Positions 7,261-35,267 of a DNA stretch of 45,892 nt are shown here, piece by piece; positions within the stretch are counted from its first letter, which is position 1, and every line of letters begins with the position of its first letter. The position numbers and the translations under genes were made by a program. The stretch lies in the NCBI GenBank assembly GCA_020692245.1, contig JAIMKT010000004.1:55279-101170 (forward strand), read 5' to 3'. The notes under the pieces are model-generated. The model made no database searches and was not told where the DNA came from. It saw nothing but the letters and a program-made list of their open reading frames with translations. Source of the DNA: Microcoleus sp. GA_180221_E-2-1-MAG-45_12. GTDB taxonomy: Bacteria > Cyanobacteriota > Cyanobacteriia > Cyanobacteriales > JAAUUE01.

Positions 7261-9039
7261 CTATTGTGGCACAGATTGATACAGCCACTGATTCACTCCT
7301 TCGGCGATCGCCCCCGCTAGTTTTTGCTGCGATTCAGGATTAGTAATCCATTCAAACTCTTCAGGATTGATCATAAACCCCAATTCTAACAAAACCGTAG
7401 GAGTGGCTTGGGGGCGAGTCAGGGCAAGGTTATTCCAATAAATACCGTAGGAGGGGCGATCGAGTTGCTGTGTTAGGTAATTGTGGAGGAAAACCGCTAA
7501 ACTGTGAGCTTGGGGGTGATACCAAAAGGCACTAATCCCTTGGGTATTCAGGGCATCGCCATCATCGGGCAGAGCGTTGTAATGGATCGAGAGGGCAAGG
7601 GCGAACTCCCCAGTGTTAATTTGTTGCATTCGTTCCGCTAGGGGAATTTCTCGATCGTCCTCCCGTGTCATGATCACCGTCGCTCCCTTGGCTTCTAGCT
7701 CCCGGCGCACTATCTGGGAAATCAACAAATTAATCTCTTTTTCAGGATAACCCGTTGGCCCCAAAGCTCCCAAATCAGTTTCACCGTGACCGGGATCTAA
7801 CAAGATTCTCACCCCAGCTAAAGATTGAGGATTACTAGCATTTCTACTCCTTAATGCGGGAGGATGACGTAACTTTAAAATTAAATTTGTGCCTTCATAG
7901 CGGAGAATATAGCCCCACTGCTGGTTATTCTTTAAACTAAAAGTATAGTTCACTCTTCCCGGTGCTGTTTGTTCCCAGTCAAGACGGGAAATAATGGGGT
8001 TATCATCAAGACGAATGGTATCAGTTTGGGCAGTGGTATTGAATAAAGTTAGGGTAAAAGTTCGATCGCCCTGCTGCACCGATAGAGGCACGGCAGTTTC
8101 TAGGGGAAAAATAATTTCTGTGGCTCCCGGCACTAAGCGAGAAGTAATCCCTCGAATCGTAGACGAAGGTAAGGCTGCATTAGGAATTACTGTTACTTCT
8201 GTCGATCGAATCCACGCCCCGTAATCTAACCGCACCCAATCTCCCTCTCTGCCTGTGACGATCGCCCTAGTTCCCCTCGGCAAGGGTGTTAGCCGGGAAA
8301 AATCCGTACTAGCTCCTGTGCGGGCGGCTCCCTGTTCATTGGTCACTTCCACCACTTCTAGGCTCTGGGGATCCAGAATCTCGATCGCCCCATTGCCTGC
8401 TTGACTGGTAGTTTGTCCATTAAGAGATAGTTGAAATTGCGGCTCGCCCAAATTTCCCGGTGCGTTGGCAACTAGGCAACCTTGGTGTTGATTCGGTAGG
8501 GCGGGGATCGGGTTCGTTAATCCTGTGAGGACAGCATAGTTTGGCGGTAACTGGGCATTACCGAGAACTGGATTCAGGGCAAGGGTTTGGTTATTTAATT
8601 GGACTGTCACCCTGCCACCGGGAGGAGCGATCGCCCCTAGACAAATTAATTCTCCGGGGAGGCGGGCTAGGGGACGGCTAGGGATCAAGTAATTTGCATC
8701 CAAAATCATTTCCCCAGTAGTAGTTGGCTGTTCTCTAGTCCTAGTAACAGTAACTGCCACTGTTCTATCCTGTTGTTGGAGAGTAAAAGTATTTTCTCCC
8801 AATGTTAGAGGCAGACTAGGGGCAAAATGTCCTTGGGGACTGCGTTGGTTGATAACTTGCCCATTGATAGTTACGGGAAATTCTGGGGCGGCAGTCCCAA
8901 TAAAGAAAATGCGATCGGCCGTGGTTTGGTGATCAGCCGGGGGATAAACTAACCTTAACCCAGTTTCCGCCGTCACAGGAACAGCAATTATGGAGACGAT
9001 CGGGATTAGGGCTGAGGCAATAATATAATTGTTTTTCAT
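7261..9039 (-). CDS. N-acetylmuramoyl-L-alanine amidase (Amidase_3, AmiC-like)
   Basis: A 592-residue exported peptidoglycan amidase that cuts the bond between N-acetylmuramic acid and the stem peptide. A signal peptide spans about 1-24 (ends VTAET). A region with beta-rich, binding-type sequence follows, including an SH3-like segment (about 236-286) and an AMIN-like segment (about 295-395). The catalytic domain is about 409-590, with zinc ligands His418 (LLDPGHGE), Glu433 (PEKE) and His486 (SIHYNA) and the catalytic Glu552 (LLELGFM). All are present. In cyanobacteria such enzymes work in septal wall splitting and, in filamentous forms, septal junction pores. Divergent from pyrG with about 150 bp between. 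Confidence 0.92.
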   Translation of the reverse strand: MKNNYIIASALIPIVSIIAVPVTAETGLRLVYPPADHQTTADRIFFIGTAAPEFPVTINGQVINQRSPQGHFAPSLPLTLGENTFTLQQQDRTVAVTVTRTREQPTTTGEMILDANYLIPSRPLARLPGELICLGAIAPPGGRVTVQLNNQTLALNPVLGNAQLPPNYAVLTGLTNPIPALPNQHQGCLVANAPGNLGEPQFQLSLNGQTTSQAGNGAIEILDPQSLEVVEVTNEQGAARTGASTDFSRLTPLPRGTRAIVTGREGDWVRLDYGAWIRSTEVTVIPNAALPSSTIRGITSRLVPGATEIIFPLETAVPLSVQQGDRTFTLTLFNTTAQTDTIRLDDNPIISRLDWEQTAPGRVNYTFSLKNNQQWGYILRYEGTNLILKLRHPPALRSRNASNPQSLAGVRILLDPGHGETDLGALGPTGYPEKEINLLISQIVRRELEAKGATVIMTREDDREIPLAERMQQINTGEFALALSIHYNALPDDGDALNTQGISAFWYHPQAHSLAVFLHNYLTQQLDRPSYGIYWNNLALTRPQATPTVLLELGFMINPEEFEWITNPESQQKLAGAIAEGVNQWLYQSVPQ

Positions 9040-31153: not shown

Positions 31154-31198
31154 CCAAATTAGATAACATGCTTCATCCTAGACCCAAGCATAATTATT

Positions 31199-31462
31199 CT
31201 ATTTCATGCAGAAAGGCACATCATAAATCCTGTCAACTTCAAAACTAACAGAGGTTTCACCGTTTTCCCAAGTGAGTTTTCTGATGATGATATCTGCATG
31301 AGCAAACCAATTCTCATCTACAAGAGGAATCGGTACATCGATAGGAATGATCCGATAACCGCTCTTAGAGGCTTGATGATCAGCTCTTGGCACTAATTGA
31401 GCCGGATAGCCCTGTTGCTGACTTAACTTGAGAATATTATTCACTTCACAAGGCATACCCAT
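31199..31462 (-). CDS. DUF2584 family protein
   Basis: An 87-residue conserved cyanobacterial protein of unknown function. It has the family-typical start MGMPCEVNNILKLSQQQGYP, a HQASKSGYRIIPIDVPIPLV core and the WFAHADIIIRKLTWENGET segment. No signal peptide or membrane segment. Convergent with purH, 45 bp apart. It is the last apparently native gene before the accessory island. Confidence 0.8.
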   Translation of the reverse strand: MGMPCEVNNILKLSQQQGYPAQLVPRADHQASKSGYRIIPIDVPIPLVDENWFAHADIIIRKLTWENGETSVSFEVDRIYDVPFCMK

Positions 31463-31510
31463 ACATAAAAGCCCCTTTTGGTTGCAAGTTAACTTTTCTG
31501 TCAGAAGTTC

Positions 31511-31547
31511 TCATTTTAGAACGTACCAACTAAAAAATGATACTAAA
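31511..31547 (+). repeat. Left copy of a 37-bp direct repeat flanking the TIR-STAND module
   Basis: This segment (TCATTTTAGAACGTACCAAC and onwards) matches 35017-35053 at 31 of 37 positions in the same orientation. It lies 82 bp before the first gene of the module. The copies are 3.5 kb apart and bracket exactly two genes. Confidence 0.75.
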
Positions 31548-31584
31548 TTTGACACCCTTGATTCCTATCAAAGGCTGTAAGCGA

Positions 31585-31590
31585 TAGAAT
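31585..31590 (+). promoter_or_regulatory. Possible -10 element TAGAAT
   Basis: TAGAAT lies 38 bp before the chosen ATG (31629) of the small convergent gene. No well-spaced -35 is visible; a TTGACA at 31549 is too far away (30 bp). Confidence 0.3.
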
Positions 31591-31628
31591 AGGTAAAAGT
31601 GAACAAGGGAATGGAGGAAGTAAGAATT

Positions 31629-32123
31629 ATGGCTCGTAAAGATCCCGCTGTTTTGAGAAAAGTATCAGTCAGCCTTCCGTTTGGAATTGGCTCAGCTGAG
31701 TGGCAAGCTGATCCCACGGAGCGTAGAGCAGCGTGGTCGTTATATATTGAACTTGTTACGCGAGTAGCTGTACAACCATTAGAAACTGATCAAGGACTTT
31801 TAGGGGAATCACTAACATCACTCTATAGCCTTTTTGGAACAACTCGAGAAATTCTCAAGGATGCGGGACCGGATGTTGGAGCTTCTCATAATTCCGTAGG
31901 AGGTATTGCTATTGCTGTGCTGAACAATGGTTTGCGTCCTTTCCTTGCAAAATGGCATCCAAAGTTGCAAGCTTGGGAAGCGCAGAAACCTGCGGGACTT
32001 AGTTTTAAGGAGCATGAGAAGAATTGGTCTGAAGAAAGTACTCTTTACTCAGAATTAGATACTCTTAGACAAGAGTTGGAGCAGTACGCTAAAGCTCTTG
32101 CTGTAATTGCTGGGGTTGATTAA
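31629..32123 (+). CDS. Conserved protein of unknown function, convergent partner of the TIR-STAND gene
   Basis: A 164-residue soluble protein, mostly helical by appearance, with no membrane segment. It contains WQADPTERRAAWSLYIELVT, LGESLTSLYSLFGTTREIL, VGGIAIAVLNNGLRPFLAKW and a C-terminal coiled-coil-like LDTLRQELEQYAKAL. It looks like a conserved domain I have seen only as hypothetical; I cannot name a function. The ATG at 31629 is chosen because GGAGGAAG lies 9 bases before it. GTG 31599 and ATG 31611 are in frame but have poorer sites. Its stop is 3 bp from the stop of the TIR-STAND gene, and both sit between direct repeats, so a joint role such as regulator, sensor or antidote is plausible but unproven. 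Confidence 0.8.
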   Translation: MARKDPAVLRKVSVSLPFGIGSAEWQADPTERRAAWSLYIELVTRVAVQPLETDQGLLGESLTSLYSLFGTTREILKDAGPDVGASHNSVGGIAIAVLNNGLRPFLAKWHPKLQAWEAQKPAGLSFKEHEKNWSEESTLYSELDTLRQELEQYAKALAVIAGVD

Positions 32124-32126
32124 CTC

Positions 32127-34703
32127 TTAATCAAGATAAAAATAACTATCAATATCAGGTGTTAATTCAGCTTCGTTAATAGTTGCTAAATCAACCCTTA
32201 ATTTTTTTAGCTCCATATCAAGTTTAATCCGTTCGCTATCAGATAAGACGCAGGTGCTTAAGTATCCTTGTAAAACATCTCGTCTAATACCTTTGTAAGA
32301 TGTACTTGCCTTATCTTTAATATCGTTACTGAGATAAAAAGCATCTTCATACCGTTTACGAGCAATTGCAAGTCTTGTTCGTAATCCTTTACGGATATCC
32401 AAATAAATATTTACAAACTTTTGATCTATCTCATCCAATATACTCTCTGCTTCATCTACTTTTCCATTTACAATTTTACATAATGCTAGGTGAGATAAAG
32501 TCTGAAATCTAGGATTGCTATTCTCGGATTTAGCTTTCTCAGCATATTGTTCTGCTACATACTTATCTCCTAGTAAAAACTCAAATCTTGATTTCCGGTA
32601 ATAGTATGCAGACGTATCAATAGGTTGCAGTTGATCAATAGATGTTCTTGCAAGATTTTCATCCCCTAGTGCTATAGCTATTTGAGCCTGTAAATCTAAG
32701 GCATAAAAATTAACACGTTTTCTATTTTGCTGACTCTGTAATACCTTTTTAACACACTCATTTGCCTTTTCATAATCCCTAACAAAGAAATAGCACTGTC
32801 CAAGTTCTCGATTGAGGGCTTCATCATTCCTTCCACTGCTGCGTGACTTTAAGTAAGAATTAATAGCATCCTGATTTTTTCGCTGCTTTCGATTTAGAAA
32901 GCCTTCTAAATAATAGACATTTCGTAATGGAGCATATTCTCTCAATCTTTGTATTTCTTGTTCTGCTTCCTGCCATTTTTCTTGATGGATAAATGCCTTA
33001 GCCCTATATGATATGACTGTTTCGTAGTCAGATTTACTGTTACACTTGTTTAGTGCCACTTCGGTAGCTTCAATAACTTTAGAATAATTCCTTTCGTGAT
33101 CATATAAGGTTTTAATAGTCTTAATTAGGTCATTAAACAAAAAGATAATTCTACTCTCAAGATTCCTATCTTTGAGATACCAAGATGCTCTATAAAGAAT
33201 ACGGTGCAGGTCAAGACGTTGTTCCTCATAATCGCGATTATCAATTAGTTCAAGTATGGATTTAACTAGAATTTTCATCACTTCAACACTTGGCAATCCA
33301 AAAGCATTAATTGCAGCATCTTCAATCGGATCAGATACTCGATATAGTTTATCCTCCACAACAACAAAGGATAGATCAATTAGGCGTGACAAACTCTTAC
33401 CAGCACTCCCTATTTCCTGTGAAATGGCTGATGCAATAATTTTTAACGGCAAAGGACTATAACTAGCAAGCAAACAAAGAATATTCTTTTCACTTTCAGA
33501 TAAGCTTTCCTTTGAAAAATGTTTAAGAAATTGATCGATTCTCAGTTCTACAAATTTAGTTTTGTCTGCTAACACAATGTCAATACCATCTTCTTCTACT
33601 AATTCCATTGCAGCATAGGCTGAAGGTGGGTAGCCAGCAGTATAGTCTGCAAGTTCAGATATTTCATTAGGTTTCAAAGGCTCTTGTCTTGAGCTATTAG
33701 CCCTCATATACTTCCTATCTAAGGTTCTAATAAGTAACTTCTGATCTTCTGTTTTAAGAGGATGAAGGCGGATTTTTGCAATAAGCTCATTGACATTAAA
33801 TGGTCTACGATTAGATACAAAAGCTATATATGCTTCATCATTTGGCGAAAGTTTTTTGATTATTGACTGGATGGGTTCGGAAATATTTCCATCACTATCG
33901 AATAATCCACCTTCATCTAAAAAAATCGGAAGCTCACCATTACTTGTCATTCTACGAAGATTCAAGAGCGTTCTATCTAATGCATTCTCTTTAGAGAGTG
34001 CTTGAATCTCCTTCATGATTTCCTGAAAGTGTATATCTGTATTGTATGGCTCAGTTAAATCAGCGACAGAGATACAAATATCTTGAATGCTAAACCCCTC
34101 CCCAAGACGAAAAGGTCTCTTTAAAGGTTTCAGACCAAGACTACTTTCTACGACTTGTTGAATGAGTGACCTACGTCCTATTCCTGGTAATCCAGTCACA
34201 AATAAGATATGTGGAGGAAATGCAACATCTGCTGGGGTCAAAGCTTCTTGTAGAGCCTGAATATCATCAGTTCGTCCAACAAAAGGATTTTTTCGCTCTT
34301 CAGTCAACCGATCAAGATGAGCGCGAATTCCCCTCGCAACACTTTTCGCCACATTCTCACGCTGGACTTTGGCGCGTCTTAGCCAAAGCGGAAGCTGCTC
34401 TATATCAACTGAGTCGGTAATGATATAAACGAGAGATTTTTGTAAATTCCCCTCAAGCTTTCTATACCATGCTTCTTCTACTTCAACTTTTACCCAGTCT
34501 GATAATAAAGAATTATTACTAGCAAAAAGGACAAATATTGAAGAGGAGTCTAATCCATTTTGAATTGACTGCTTAAATTCATTGCCTGTTTCAAACGCCT
34601 GCTCGTCAAAAATACAGTGCTGGCGACCCAGCTCTTGTGCAACAACCCTAACAAACTCCTTATCTTTGGATGAATGGGACAAAAACGCTCTGGCGATGGA
34701 CAT
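32127..34703 (-). CDS. TIR-STAND NTPase-TPR protein (candidate antiphage immune receptor)
   Basis: An 858-residue protein. The N-terminal TIR domain (about 4-130) begins ARAFLSHSSKDKEF and has SDWVKVEVEEA, where Glu74 sits four residues after Trp70, the position of the catalytic Glu in NAD-cleaving TIRs. FVGRTDDIQALQEAL (141-155) introduces a STAND NTPase: P-loop GLPGIGRRSL (171-180, with Arg where Lys is usual) and Walker B PIFLDEGG (259-266). A winged-helix-like part and about 300 residues of TPR-like helices follow. TIR-STAND proteins sense phage and deplete NAD+; that role is inferred here. No CGATCG octamer core was found in the gene, unlike its neighbours, so transfer is likely. Stop codons of this and the small convergent gene are 3 bp apart. 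Confidence 0.88.
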   Translation of the reverse strand: MSIARAFLSHSSKDKEFVRVVAQELGRQHCIFDEQAFETGNEFKQSIQNGLDSSSIFVLFASNNSLLSDWVKVEVEEAWYRKLEGNLQKSLVYIITDSVDIEQLPLWLRRAKVQRENVAKSVARGIRAHLDRLTEERKNPFVGRTDDIQALQEALTPADVAFPPHILFVTGLPGIGRRSLIQQVVESSLGLKPLKRPFRLGEGFSIQDICISVADLTEPYNTDIHFQEIMKEIQALSKENALDRTLLNLRRMTSNGELPIFLDEGGLFDSDGNISEPIQSIIKKLSPNDEAYIAFVSNRRPFNVNELIAKIRLHPLKTEDQKLLIRTLDRKYMRANSSRQEPLKPNEISELADYTAGYPPSAYAAMELVEEDGIDIVLADKTKFVELRIDQFLKHFSKESLSESEKNILCLLASYSPLPLKIIASAISQEIGSAGKSLSRLIDLSFVVVEDKLYRVSDPIEDAAINAFGLPSVEVMKILVKSILELIDNRDYEEQRLDLHRILYRASWYLKDRNLESRIIFLFNDLIKTIKTLYDHERNYSKVIEATEVALNKCNSKSDYETVISYRAKAFIHQEKWQEAEQEIQRLREYAPLRNVYYLEGFLNRKQRKNQDAINSYLKSRSSGRNDEALNRELGQCYFFVRDYEKANECVKKVLQSQQNRKRVNFYALDLQAQIAIALGDENLARTSIDQLQPIDTSAYYYRKSRFEFLLGDKYVAEQYAEKAKSENSNPRFQTLSHLALCKIVNGKVDEAESILDEIDQKFVNIYLDIRKGLRTRLAIARKRYEDAFYLSNDIKDKASTSYKGIRRDVLQGYLSTCVLSDSERIKLDMELKKLRVDLATINEAELTPDIDSYFYLD

Positions 34704-35016
34704 TTTCGCTTACCTTAATATTGTTACTCTCGGTTTGTACTATCATAACTAGAATTTTAGAGATAGTGATTGAAATATGTGCTAGCAGCACAACACATTG
34801 CTGGTGTGTATGGAATGGAGTTTATTGATAGGTGTTTGAGGTTATCTGCTGCTGTACAACTTCACCGCTATGTAGTGTGATCGCTAATTGCTACTCACAT
34901 GTAACGGACGCAAGCTAATACCTACCATCCATGCACACCAACCACCGAGAGTTTATCGGCTATGATGCAAAGGCTATCTGCGACGAGTGATGAGCAACGG
35001 TGAAAACCAACAATCC

Positions 35017-35053
35017 TCATTTTAGAATGTATGAACTAAAAAATGGTATCAAA
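35017..35053 (+). repeat. Right copy of the 37-bp direct repeat flanking the TIR-STAND module
   Basis: TCATTTTAGAATGTATGAAC and onwards, 31 of 37 identical with 31511-31547. It lies 313 bp upstream of the TIR-STAND start codon. CGATCG sites reappear just beyond it (35080, 35107). Confidence 0.75.
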
Positions 35054-35132
35054 AAGGCTTTTTTCTCTAAGTTGGTGAACGATCGGATAGGGTTTCTAGT
35101 TTTTGTCGATCGAGCAGTTTTGCCATAACTAA

Positions 35133-35267
35133 GAATTGCTGATTGTTGGATATGGAGACAGGACTATTGCCAATATAGATAATATTACGATAACTTTGCG
35201 TGACAGTTCTAGAGGAAACTCAGTACGAATCACTTATTTGCGAATGAGTGATGTGGGTGTATTCTAA
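35133..35267 (+). pseudogene. C-terminal fragment of an unidentified gene
   Basis: An open stretch of 44 codons after a TAA at 35130, with no start codon and ending at TAA 35265. It reads like the end of a beta-rich protein (DNITITLRDSSRGNSVRITY, then LRMSDVGVF). I do not recognise the family. Probably the relic of a gene interrupted when the neighbouring elements came in. Confidence 0.35.

What the first reader, a model, noticed from the sequence alone, without database searches (positions are those of the whole stretch)
31511..35053. Two-gene TIR-STAND module bracketed by direct repeats
A TIR-STAND-TPR gene and a 164-residue gene of unknown function face each other with 3 bp between stop codons. 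They lie between 37-bp near-identical direct repeats, and I find no CGATCG core in between although flanking genes are full of them. This is the pattern of a mobile defence module; the pair itself may be an undescribed system.
Basis: partly seen in the sequence, partly recalled or inferred. Interest (0 to 1): 0.75.

Follow-up and report, generated by a model that had tools for sequence, protein, structure and literature searches.

The report
TIR-STAND defence gene with dedicated partner
A likely virus-defence gene in a cyanobacterium sits beside a small unnamed gene whose relatives, in several bacterial phyla, nearly always lie next to genes of the same TIR enzyme class, so it is probably an overlooked component of TIR-based immunity; the repeats around the pair are ordinary scattered mini-transposons, not its ends.

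Summary
The two genes are real: a 164-residue ORF (31629-32123 +) and an 858-residue TIR-STAND-TPR gene (32127-34703 -), convergent with 3 bp between stops. The large protein belongs to the TIR-NLR group (PADLOC 3e-33; solved relative 9m0n 3e-34), which includes a tested anti-phage member. The small protein matches no Pfam, NCBIfam, PADLOC or PHROG family. Its relatives follow TIR domains rather than this particular protein: 62 of 83 copies from GTDB genomes have a TIR gene within 150 bp. Outside cyanobacteria the same holds for most plasmid and viral-contig copies, including a Photobacterium copy 13 bp from a genuine TIR-NLR. In this genome the only TIR_2 hit and the only small gene are neighbours. 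Partner architectures vary (GUN4, WD40, FGE, methyltransferase, STAND-TPR), but the TIR catalytic Glu is kept in 62/62. In three rhizobia the small domain is fused to a patatin-like lipase. I read it as a general TIR partner (adaptor or reader of TIR output); the mechanism is inferred. The 'near-identical direct repeats' are 84% alike: one full and one truncated copy of a dispersed ~145-bp MITE-like repeat. Mobility is supported separately: the same convergent pair lies beside different upstream genes in Phormidium FACHB-1136.

The parts
31629..32123 (+). small partner gene, 164 aa (GTG alternative at 31599); predicted helix bundle, no named family
   Evidence: no Pfam/PADLOC/NCBIfam/PHROG family; fold
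32127..34703 (-). TIR-STAND-TPR gene, 858 aa, TIR-NLR group
   Evidence: PADLOC TIR-NLR 2.8e-33; PDB 9m0n 3.1e-34 over residues 5-659
34401..34685 (-). TIR domain, residues 7-101
   Evidence: Pfam TIR_2 5e-15
34482..34484 (-). putative catalytic Glu74 (WVKVE motif) of the TIR NADase
   Evidence: column invariant in 62/62 TIR partners aligned; catalytic role from knowledge of TIR NADases
34164..34193 (-). P-loop GLPGIGRRSL with Arg in place of the Walker A Lys
   Evidence: the same GRR in L070, L181 and L190, and GR at the same place in L191
32424..33086 (-). TPR region, about residues 540-760
   Evidence: Pfam TPR_19, TPR_2 and others
31510..31547 (+). truncated copy of the dispersed MITE-like repeat (left 'direct repeat')
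35007..35149 (+). full copy of the dispersed MITE-like repeat (right 'direct repeat' is its 5' part)
   Evidence: inverted repeat I7; family
34785..34870 (.). decayed attC-like site (lead only)
   Evidence: 75-79% identical to sites in L133, L135, L136; L136 keeps ACCTAAC...GTTAGGT
34929..35000 (.). second decayed attC-like site (lead only)
   Evidence: 80-86% identical to sites in L129-L132 and L134

Best explanation
The two genes form one TIR-based defence unit. Inferred steps: the TPR part senses an invader-derived or infection cue; the STAND NTPase oligomerises the protein; the clustered TIR domains, which keep the catalytic Glu, cleave NAD+ and make ADP-ribose-type products. The small helical protein is a dedicated but generic TIR partner. 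It acts at the level of the TIR output, either by binding the TIR-made nucleotide or by docking on the TIR assembly, and passes it on. It is not a cognate antitoxin specific to one TIR protein. In rhizobia the same domain is fused to a patatin-like lipase, and in Streptomyces and Aureispira it is preceded by hydrophobic, membrane-helix-like segments, which suits an adaptor that positions or triggers an effector. Shown: genetic linkage to TIR across phyla, conservation of the TIR catalytic residue, interchange of TIR partners, and TIR-NLR membership of the large protein. Inferred: every biochemical step.
For: Of 83 full-length small ORFs from GTDB loci, 62 have a TIR gene within 150 bp (50 same strand downstream, 10 same strand upstream, 2 opposite). 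In a 245-genome sample not chosen for linkage, 14 of 16 full-length copies (window excluded) have an adjacent TIR gene. TIR genes are rare: 1-9 TIR_2 hits in each of nine genomes checked, and exactly one in the window's genome, next to its only small gene. Linkage recurs on plasmids of Photobacterium (TIR-NLR 13 bp away), Streptomyces, Aureispira, Vibrio and rhizobia, and in viral contigs L192-L194. Catalytic Glu kept in 62/62 partners. Small pairwise identity median 73% against 37% for partner TIRs, no positive correlation (Mantel rho -0.18, p 0.985). In Nostoc sp. LPT (L081) three tandem small + TIR-GUN4 units have smalls 98-99% identical and TIR domains 25-47% identical. At least 7 architecture changes on the small tree. 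In Nostoc NMS7 (L070) the orthologous TIR-STAND (80% identical) has lost the convergent small gene, with a remnant of about 75 bp left, and has another small gene upstream. Patatin fusions in three rhizobia.
Against: No functional data. About a quarter of small genes lack a TIR within 150 bp, and some (Nodosilinea-type genomes, L113/L114/L118/L120) have none within the fetched flanks. TIR-NLR relatives without a detected small neighbour exist (L191 and L190). The high small identity is biased by the pattern-based scan and the best-80 cut-off.
Confidence: 0.5

Rival explanations
1. The small protein is an antitoxin or inhibitor that keeps the neighbouring TIR enzyme silent until infection.
For: Small gene first, TIR second on the same strand in 50 of 83 copies, the usual antitoxin-first order; small size; orphan small genes occur.
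Against: Smalls up to 99% identical sit next to TIRs only 14-47% identical, with no positive distance correlation, whereas cognate inhibitors usually co-diverge; fusion to patatin does not fit an inhibitor; orientation varies.
Confidence: 0.22
2. The large gene is a single-gene TIR-NLR system; the small gene is a frequent neighbour with a separate job, for example another defence gene of the same islands, or a homogenised gene that serves as a recombination anchor for shuffling TIR genes.
For: The E. coli TIR-NLR system was tested as a defence system in PMC9122126, and it is one model in PADLOC (its single-gene status is from my knowledge of the system); near-identical smalls with diverged TIRs in tandem (L081) would suit a recombination anchor.
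Against: Gaps of 1-17 bp or overlap in most cases and recurrence in unrelated phyla; neighbour genes other than TIR change from locus to locus; the single TIR and single small of this genome are adjacent; small gene replaced rather than lost in L070.
Confidence: 0.2
3. A composite mobile element whose ends are the two direct repeats.
For: Two repeat copies in direct orientation 3.5 kb apart; homology with FACHB-1136 starts 4 bp after the left copy.
Against: The repeats belong to a dispersed MITE-like family with copies across the genome and in G022; the left copy is truncated, the right complete; the two genes between them are not a transposase or integrase; no repeat at the purH site of G022.
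Confidence: 0.04

Closest known systems
TIR-NLR (Rst_TIR-NLR; Rousset et al. 2022, PMC9122126)
   Same: TIR-STAND-TPR layout and sequence similarity (PADLOC 2.8e-33; PDB 9m0n 3.1e-34 over residues 5-659); the Arg-substituted P-loop is shared with the Photobacterium relative L181, which matches 9m0n at 6e-254
   Different: A small helical partner gene lies next to it; TIR-NLR is treated as a single-gene system
Thoeris (ThsA/ThsB)
   Same: A TIR protein paired with a second gene; one relative (L193) pairs the small gene with a ThsB-type TIR
   Different: No ThsA model matched in the window pair or its two neighbours; the small partner has no match to any library family
Effector-associated domains and bacterial Death-like adaptors (Kaur et al. 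2020, PMC7159879; PMC8195603)
   Same: Small helical domain associated with varied effectors (TIR proteins with GUN4 or FGE parts); fusion to an effector in rhizobia
   Different: No Pfam match; whether it is one of their numbered EADs, or has a homotypic second copy on the partner, could not be settled here
MITEs / small dispersed repeats of cyanobacteria
   Same: ~145 bp, terminal inverted repeats, several copies
   Different: Not linked to the function of the pair

Membership tests
TIR-NLR | N-terminal TIR domain with catalytic Glu | tested here: met
   TIR_2 5e-15; Glu74 in the invariant column
TIR-NLR | STAND-type NTPase with P-loop | tested here: inconclusive
   AAA_16 1.3e-4, below the Pfam cut-off; P-loop GIGRRS with Arg for Lys, shared with relatives; the PADLOC full-length model covers it
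TIR-NLR | C-terminal TPR repeats | tested here: met
   TPR_19 1.7e-8
TIR-NLR | Sequence similarity to the TIR-NLR model and solved member | tested here: met
   PADLOC 2.8e-33; 9m0n 3.1e-34
TIR-NLR | Anti-phage activity | not testable with these tools
   needs phage challenge
Thoeris | ThsA effector encoded with the TIR gene | tested here: not met
   the pair and its two neighbours (DUF2584 and acyltransferase) match no ThsA model
Toxin-antitoxin pair | Cognate partners co-diverge | tested here: not met
   Mantel rho -0.18, p 0.985, with scan bias noted
Toxin-antitoxin pair | Small gene neutralises toxicity | not testable with these tools
   needs expression assay
Composite transposon / direct-repeat-bounded module | Repeats are element ends found only with the module | tested here: not met
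   repeat family dispersed elsewhere in the genome and in G022
[quoted passage not shown]
   no dedicated search of partner proteins for a second copy was run; the Pfam tally of 62 partners does not address it

The most novel reading that the evidence does not exclude
The small protein founds an unnamed family that is a general component of bacterial TIR immunity: it reads the nucleotide made by many different TIR sensors, while TIR genes are swapped next to a nearly constant small gene. TIR-NLR and several TIR-GUN4 or TIR-WD40 proteins would then be two-component signalling systems rather than single-gene NAD+ destroyers.
Probability: 0.3. Interest if true: 0.8.

Novelty: new variant of a known kind. 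Interest (0 to 1): 0.6.

Why it matters
TIR enzymes are central to immunity in bacteria, plants and animals, and how bacterial TIR proteins are controlled is only partly known. A small family that accompanies TIR genes of many architectures in several phyla, yet is absent from the Pfam, NCBIfam, PADLOC and PHROG libraries searched, is a concrete and testable candidate for a shared regulator or downstream reader. It also adds a partner to a protein class (TIR-NLR) treated as working alone.

Tried and rejected
Direct repeats as element ends: rejected. Clean empty site in G022: not found; after purH that genome has different genes and a transposase-like ORF at the contig end, and the aminotransferase side lies on another contig. 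Rfam scan of the region: no family. Fold search of the small protein: only weak four-helix-bundle (FAT-like) matches, none significant. AlphaFold model of the large protein: pTM 0.31 from 4 sequences, not used. PDB sequence search with the small family: nothing significant. Phage records: no small homologue. Orthologues of the STAND-TPR part in 386 cyanobacterial genomes: only the window's own. Paper searches for 'TIR-STAND' and '9M0N' returned none; no paper naming the small family came up in the other searches.

Full report
Observation. The window holds two convergent genes with 3 bp between stop codons: a 164-residue ORF from ATG 31629 to 32123 (+) and an 858-residue ORF 32127-34703 (-). 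The large protein has a TIR domain (TIR_2, 5e-15), a weak P-loop NTPase match (AAA_16, below the curated cut-off) and TPR repeats. It matches the PADLOC TIR-NLR model at 2.8e-33 and, over residues 5-659, the solved 824-residue protein of PDB entries 9m0n and 9umd at 3.1e-34. The small protein has no match in Pfam, PADLOC, NCBIfam or PHROGs.

Repeats. The two direct repeats (31510-31547 and 35016-35053) are 84% identical, not near-identical. Under a strict pattern they are the only two copies in the genome, but a nucleotide search with the right flank finds about ten further full or partial copies in the same genome and seven in the same-genus genome G022. The alignment shows a ~145-bp element with terminal inverted repeats CAGCAATTCTCA and TGAGAATTGCTG. 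The right copy in the window is complete (35007-35149) and the left is a truncated 5' end. The repeats are therefore MITE-like dispersed elements and do not define the module. The absence of CGATCG is real: a 4033-bp gap, the largest in the window, with 0 seen against about 11.6 expected in 31155-35005 at the local rate. It extends over the DUF2584 gene as well, and base composition alone would give only 0.5. GC is 0.36 in the TIR-STAND gene and 0.44 in the small gene, against 0.50 in purH, which fits acquired DNA.

Site comparison. In G022, homology continues through purH to about window 31166 and then stops; other genes follow and no module or repeat copy is present there. In Phormidium sp. 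FACHB-1136 (L048) the small gene (92% identical) and the C-terminal part of the convergent TIR-STAND gene occur together beside different upstream genes. Homology starts at window 31552, just after the left repeat remnant, and the gene is broken near the contig end by unrelated, probably insertion-sequence, DNA. The pair has thus moved as a unit, by a route that is not known.

The small family follows TIR genes. In 245 genomes of the same order, sampled without regard to linkage, 21 have a match to the small protein. Of 16 full-length copies other than the window's, 14 have a TIR gene directly beside them, usually downstream on the same strand. A GTDB scan gave 79 loci. Of 83 full-length small ORFs in them, 62 have a TIR gene within 150 bp: 50 downstream on the same strand, 10 upstream on the same strand and 2 on the opposite strand. 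TIR genes are scarce in these genomes (1-9 TIR_2 hits in each of nine checked), and in the window's own genome the single TIR_2 hit and the single small gene are neighbours. The family reaches beyond cyanobacteria. On plasmids it occurs at about 27-41% identity in Photobacterium, Streptomyces, Ruegeria, Aureispira, Vibrio and three rhizobia, mostly with TIR genes adjacent or within a few kilobases; Ruegeria is an exception. The Photobacterium copy lies 13 bp from a TIR-STAND gene that matches 9m0n at 6e-254; among the 62 partner proteins, of which it is one, the best TIR-NLR model score is 9e-277. In viral contigs the small gene is next to a ThsB-type TIR (L193), a plain TIR (L194) and a protein with a C-terminal TIR (L192).

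What is constant and what varies. Sixty-two TIR proteins were aligned: the window's, those beside small genes in the GTDB loci, and two from plasmids. TIR_2 is found in 61. The rest of the protein varies: GUN4 in 32, WD40 repeats in 7, and in others FGE-sulfatase, methyltransferase or STAND-TPR. The column of the putative catalytic glutamate is Glu in 62 of 62, which argues that enzymatic activity is kept. Small proteins are much more alike than their TIR partners (median pairwise identity 73% against 37%), without positive correlation (Mantel rho -0.18, p 0.985). The high small identity is partly due to the scan, which requires conserved peptides and keeps the best 80 loci, so only the lack of correlation and the extreme cases carry weight. 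The clearest case is Nostoc sp. LPT (L081), with three tandem small + TIR-GUN4 units whose smalls are 98-99% identical while their TIR domains are 25-47% identical. The small tree needs at least 7 changes of partner architecture. In Nostoc NMS7 (L070) an 80% identical TIR-STAND-TPR gene keeps only a remnant (about 75 bp) of the convergent small gene and has a different small gene upstream on the same strand: the partner was replaced, not simply lost.

Mechanism. Shown by sequence: linkage, TIR catalytic residue, TIR-NLR membership, partner interchange, fusion of the small domain to a patatin-like lipase in Sinorhizobium, Mesorhizobium and Rhizobium, and hydrophobic, membrane-helix-like N-terminal segments in the Streptomyces and Aureispira copies (seen by eye). 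The predicted fold is a helix bundle with pLDDT around 90 over residues 58-161 and no significant structural match. Invariant or nearly invariant polar residues in the diverse alignment A5 include Glu41, Arg45, Arg73, Arg103, Trp109, His110 and Glu142, compatible with a ligand or docking surface, though their positions in space were not examined. Inferred: the STAND-TPR part senses infection and assembles the protein, the TIR domains cleave NAD+, and the small protein reads or transmits TIR output. A cognate inhibitor is the main rival; partner interchange and the patatin fusions speak against it but do not exclude it.

Novelty. TIR-NLR is a known defence class (PMC9122126). The association of a small, unnamed family with TIR genes of many kinds, including TIR-NLR, was not found in the libraries or papers searched, which cover open-licence PMC papers only. 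I therefore call it a new variant of a known kind rather than a categorically new system.

Noticed in passing
window 34785-34870 and 34929-35000: Two decayed sequences resembling integron attC sites upstream of the TIR-STAND gene; relatives in other cyanobacterial genomes (e.g. L136, ACCTAAC...GTTAGGT with palindromic fold) look more intact. No integrase was sought.
   Followed up: partly
L081 3073-11352: Three tandem small + TIR-GUN4 units in Nostoc sp. LPT with nearly identical small genes and strongly diverged TIR domains, suggesting gene conversion of the small gene.
   Followed up: partly
window 34164-34193: Walker A lysine replaced by arginine (GIGRRS), also in the TIR-STAND relatives L070, L181 and L190, and apparently L191.
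   Followed up: partly
L187 4902-7526, L188 4902-7478, L189 4905-7577: In three rhizobial plasmids the small domain is fused to the N-terminus of a patatin-like lipase protein; L187 and L188 have several TIR genes around it, L189 a weak TIR hit just downstream.
   Followed up: partly
L113, L114, L118, L120: Nodosilinea-type genomes carry an orphan small gene at a conserved site without a nearby TIR gene; the two checked have 17-21 TIR_2 hits genome-wide, so it might act in trans.
   Followed up: partly
L048 about 7460-7617: The TIR-STAND gene of Phormidium FACHB-1136 is interrupted near the contig end by unrelated, probably insertion-sequence, DNA.
   Followed up: no
window 31199-31462: A DUF2584 gene between purH and the pair lies inside the same CGATCG-free stretch and is missing after purH in G022.
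   Followed up: no
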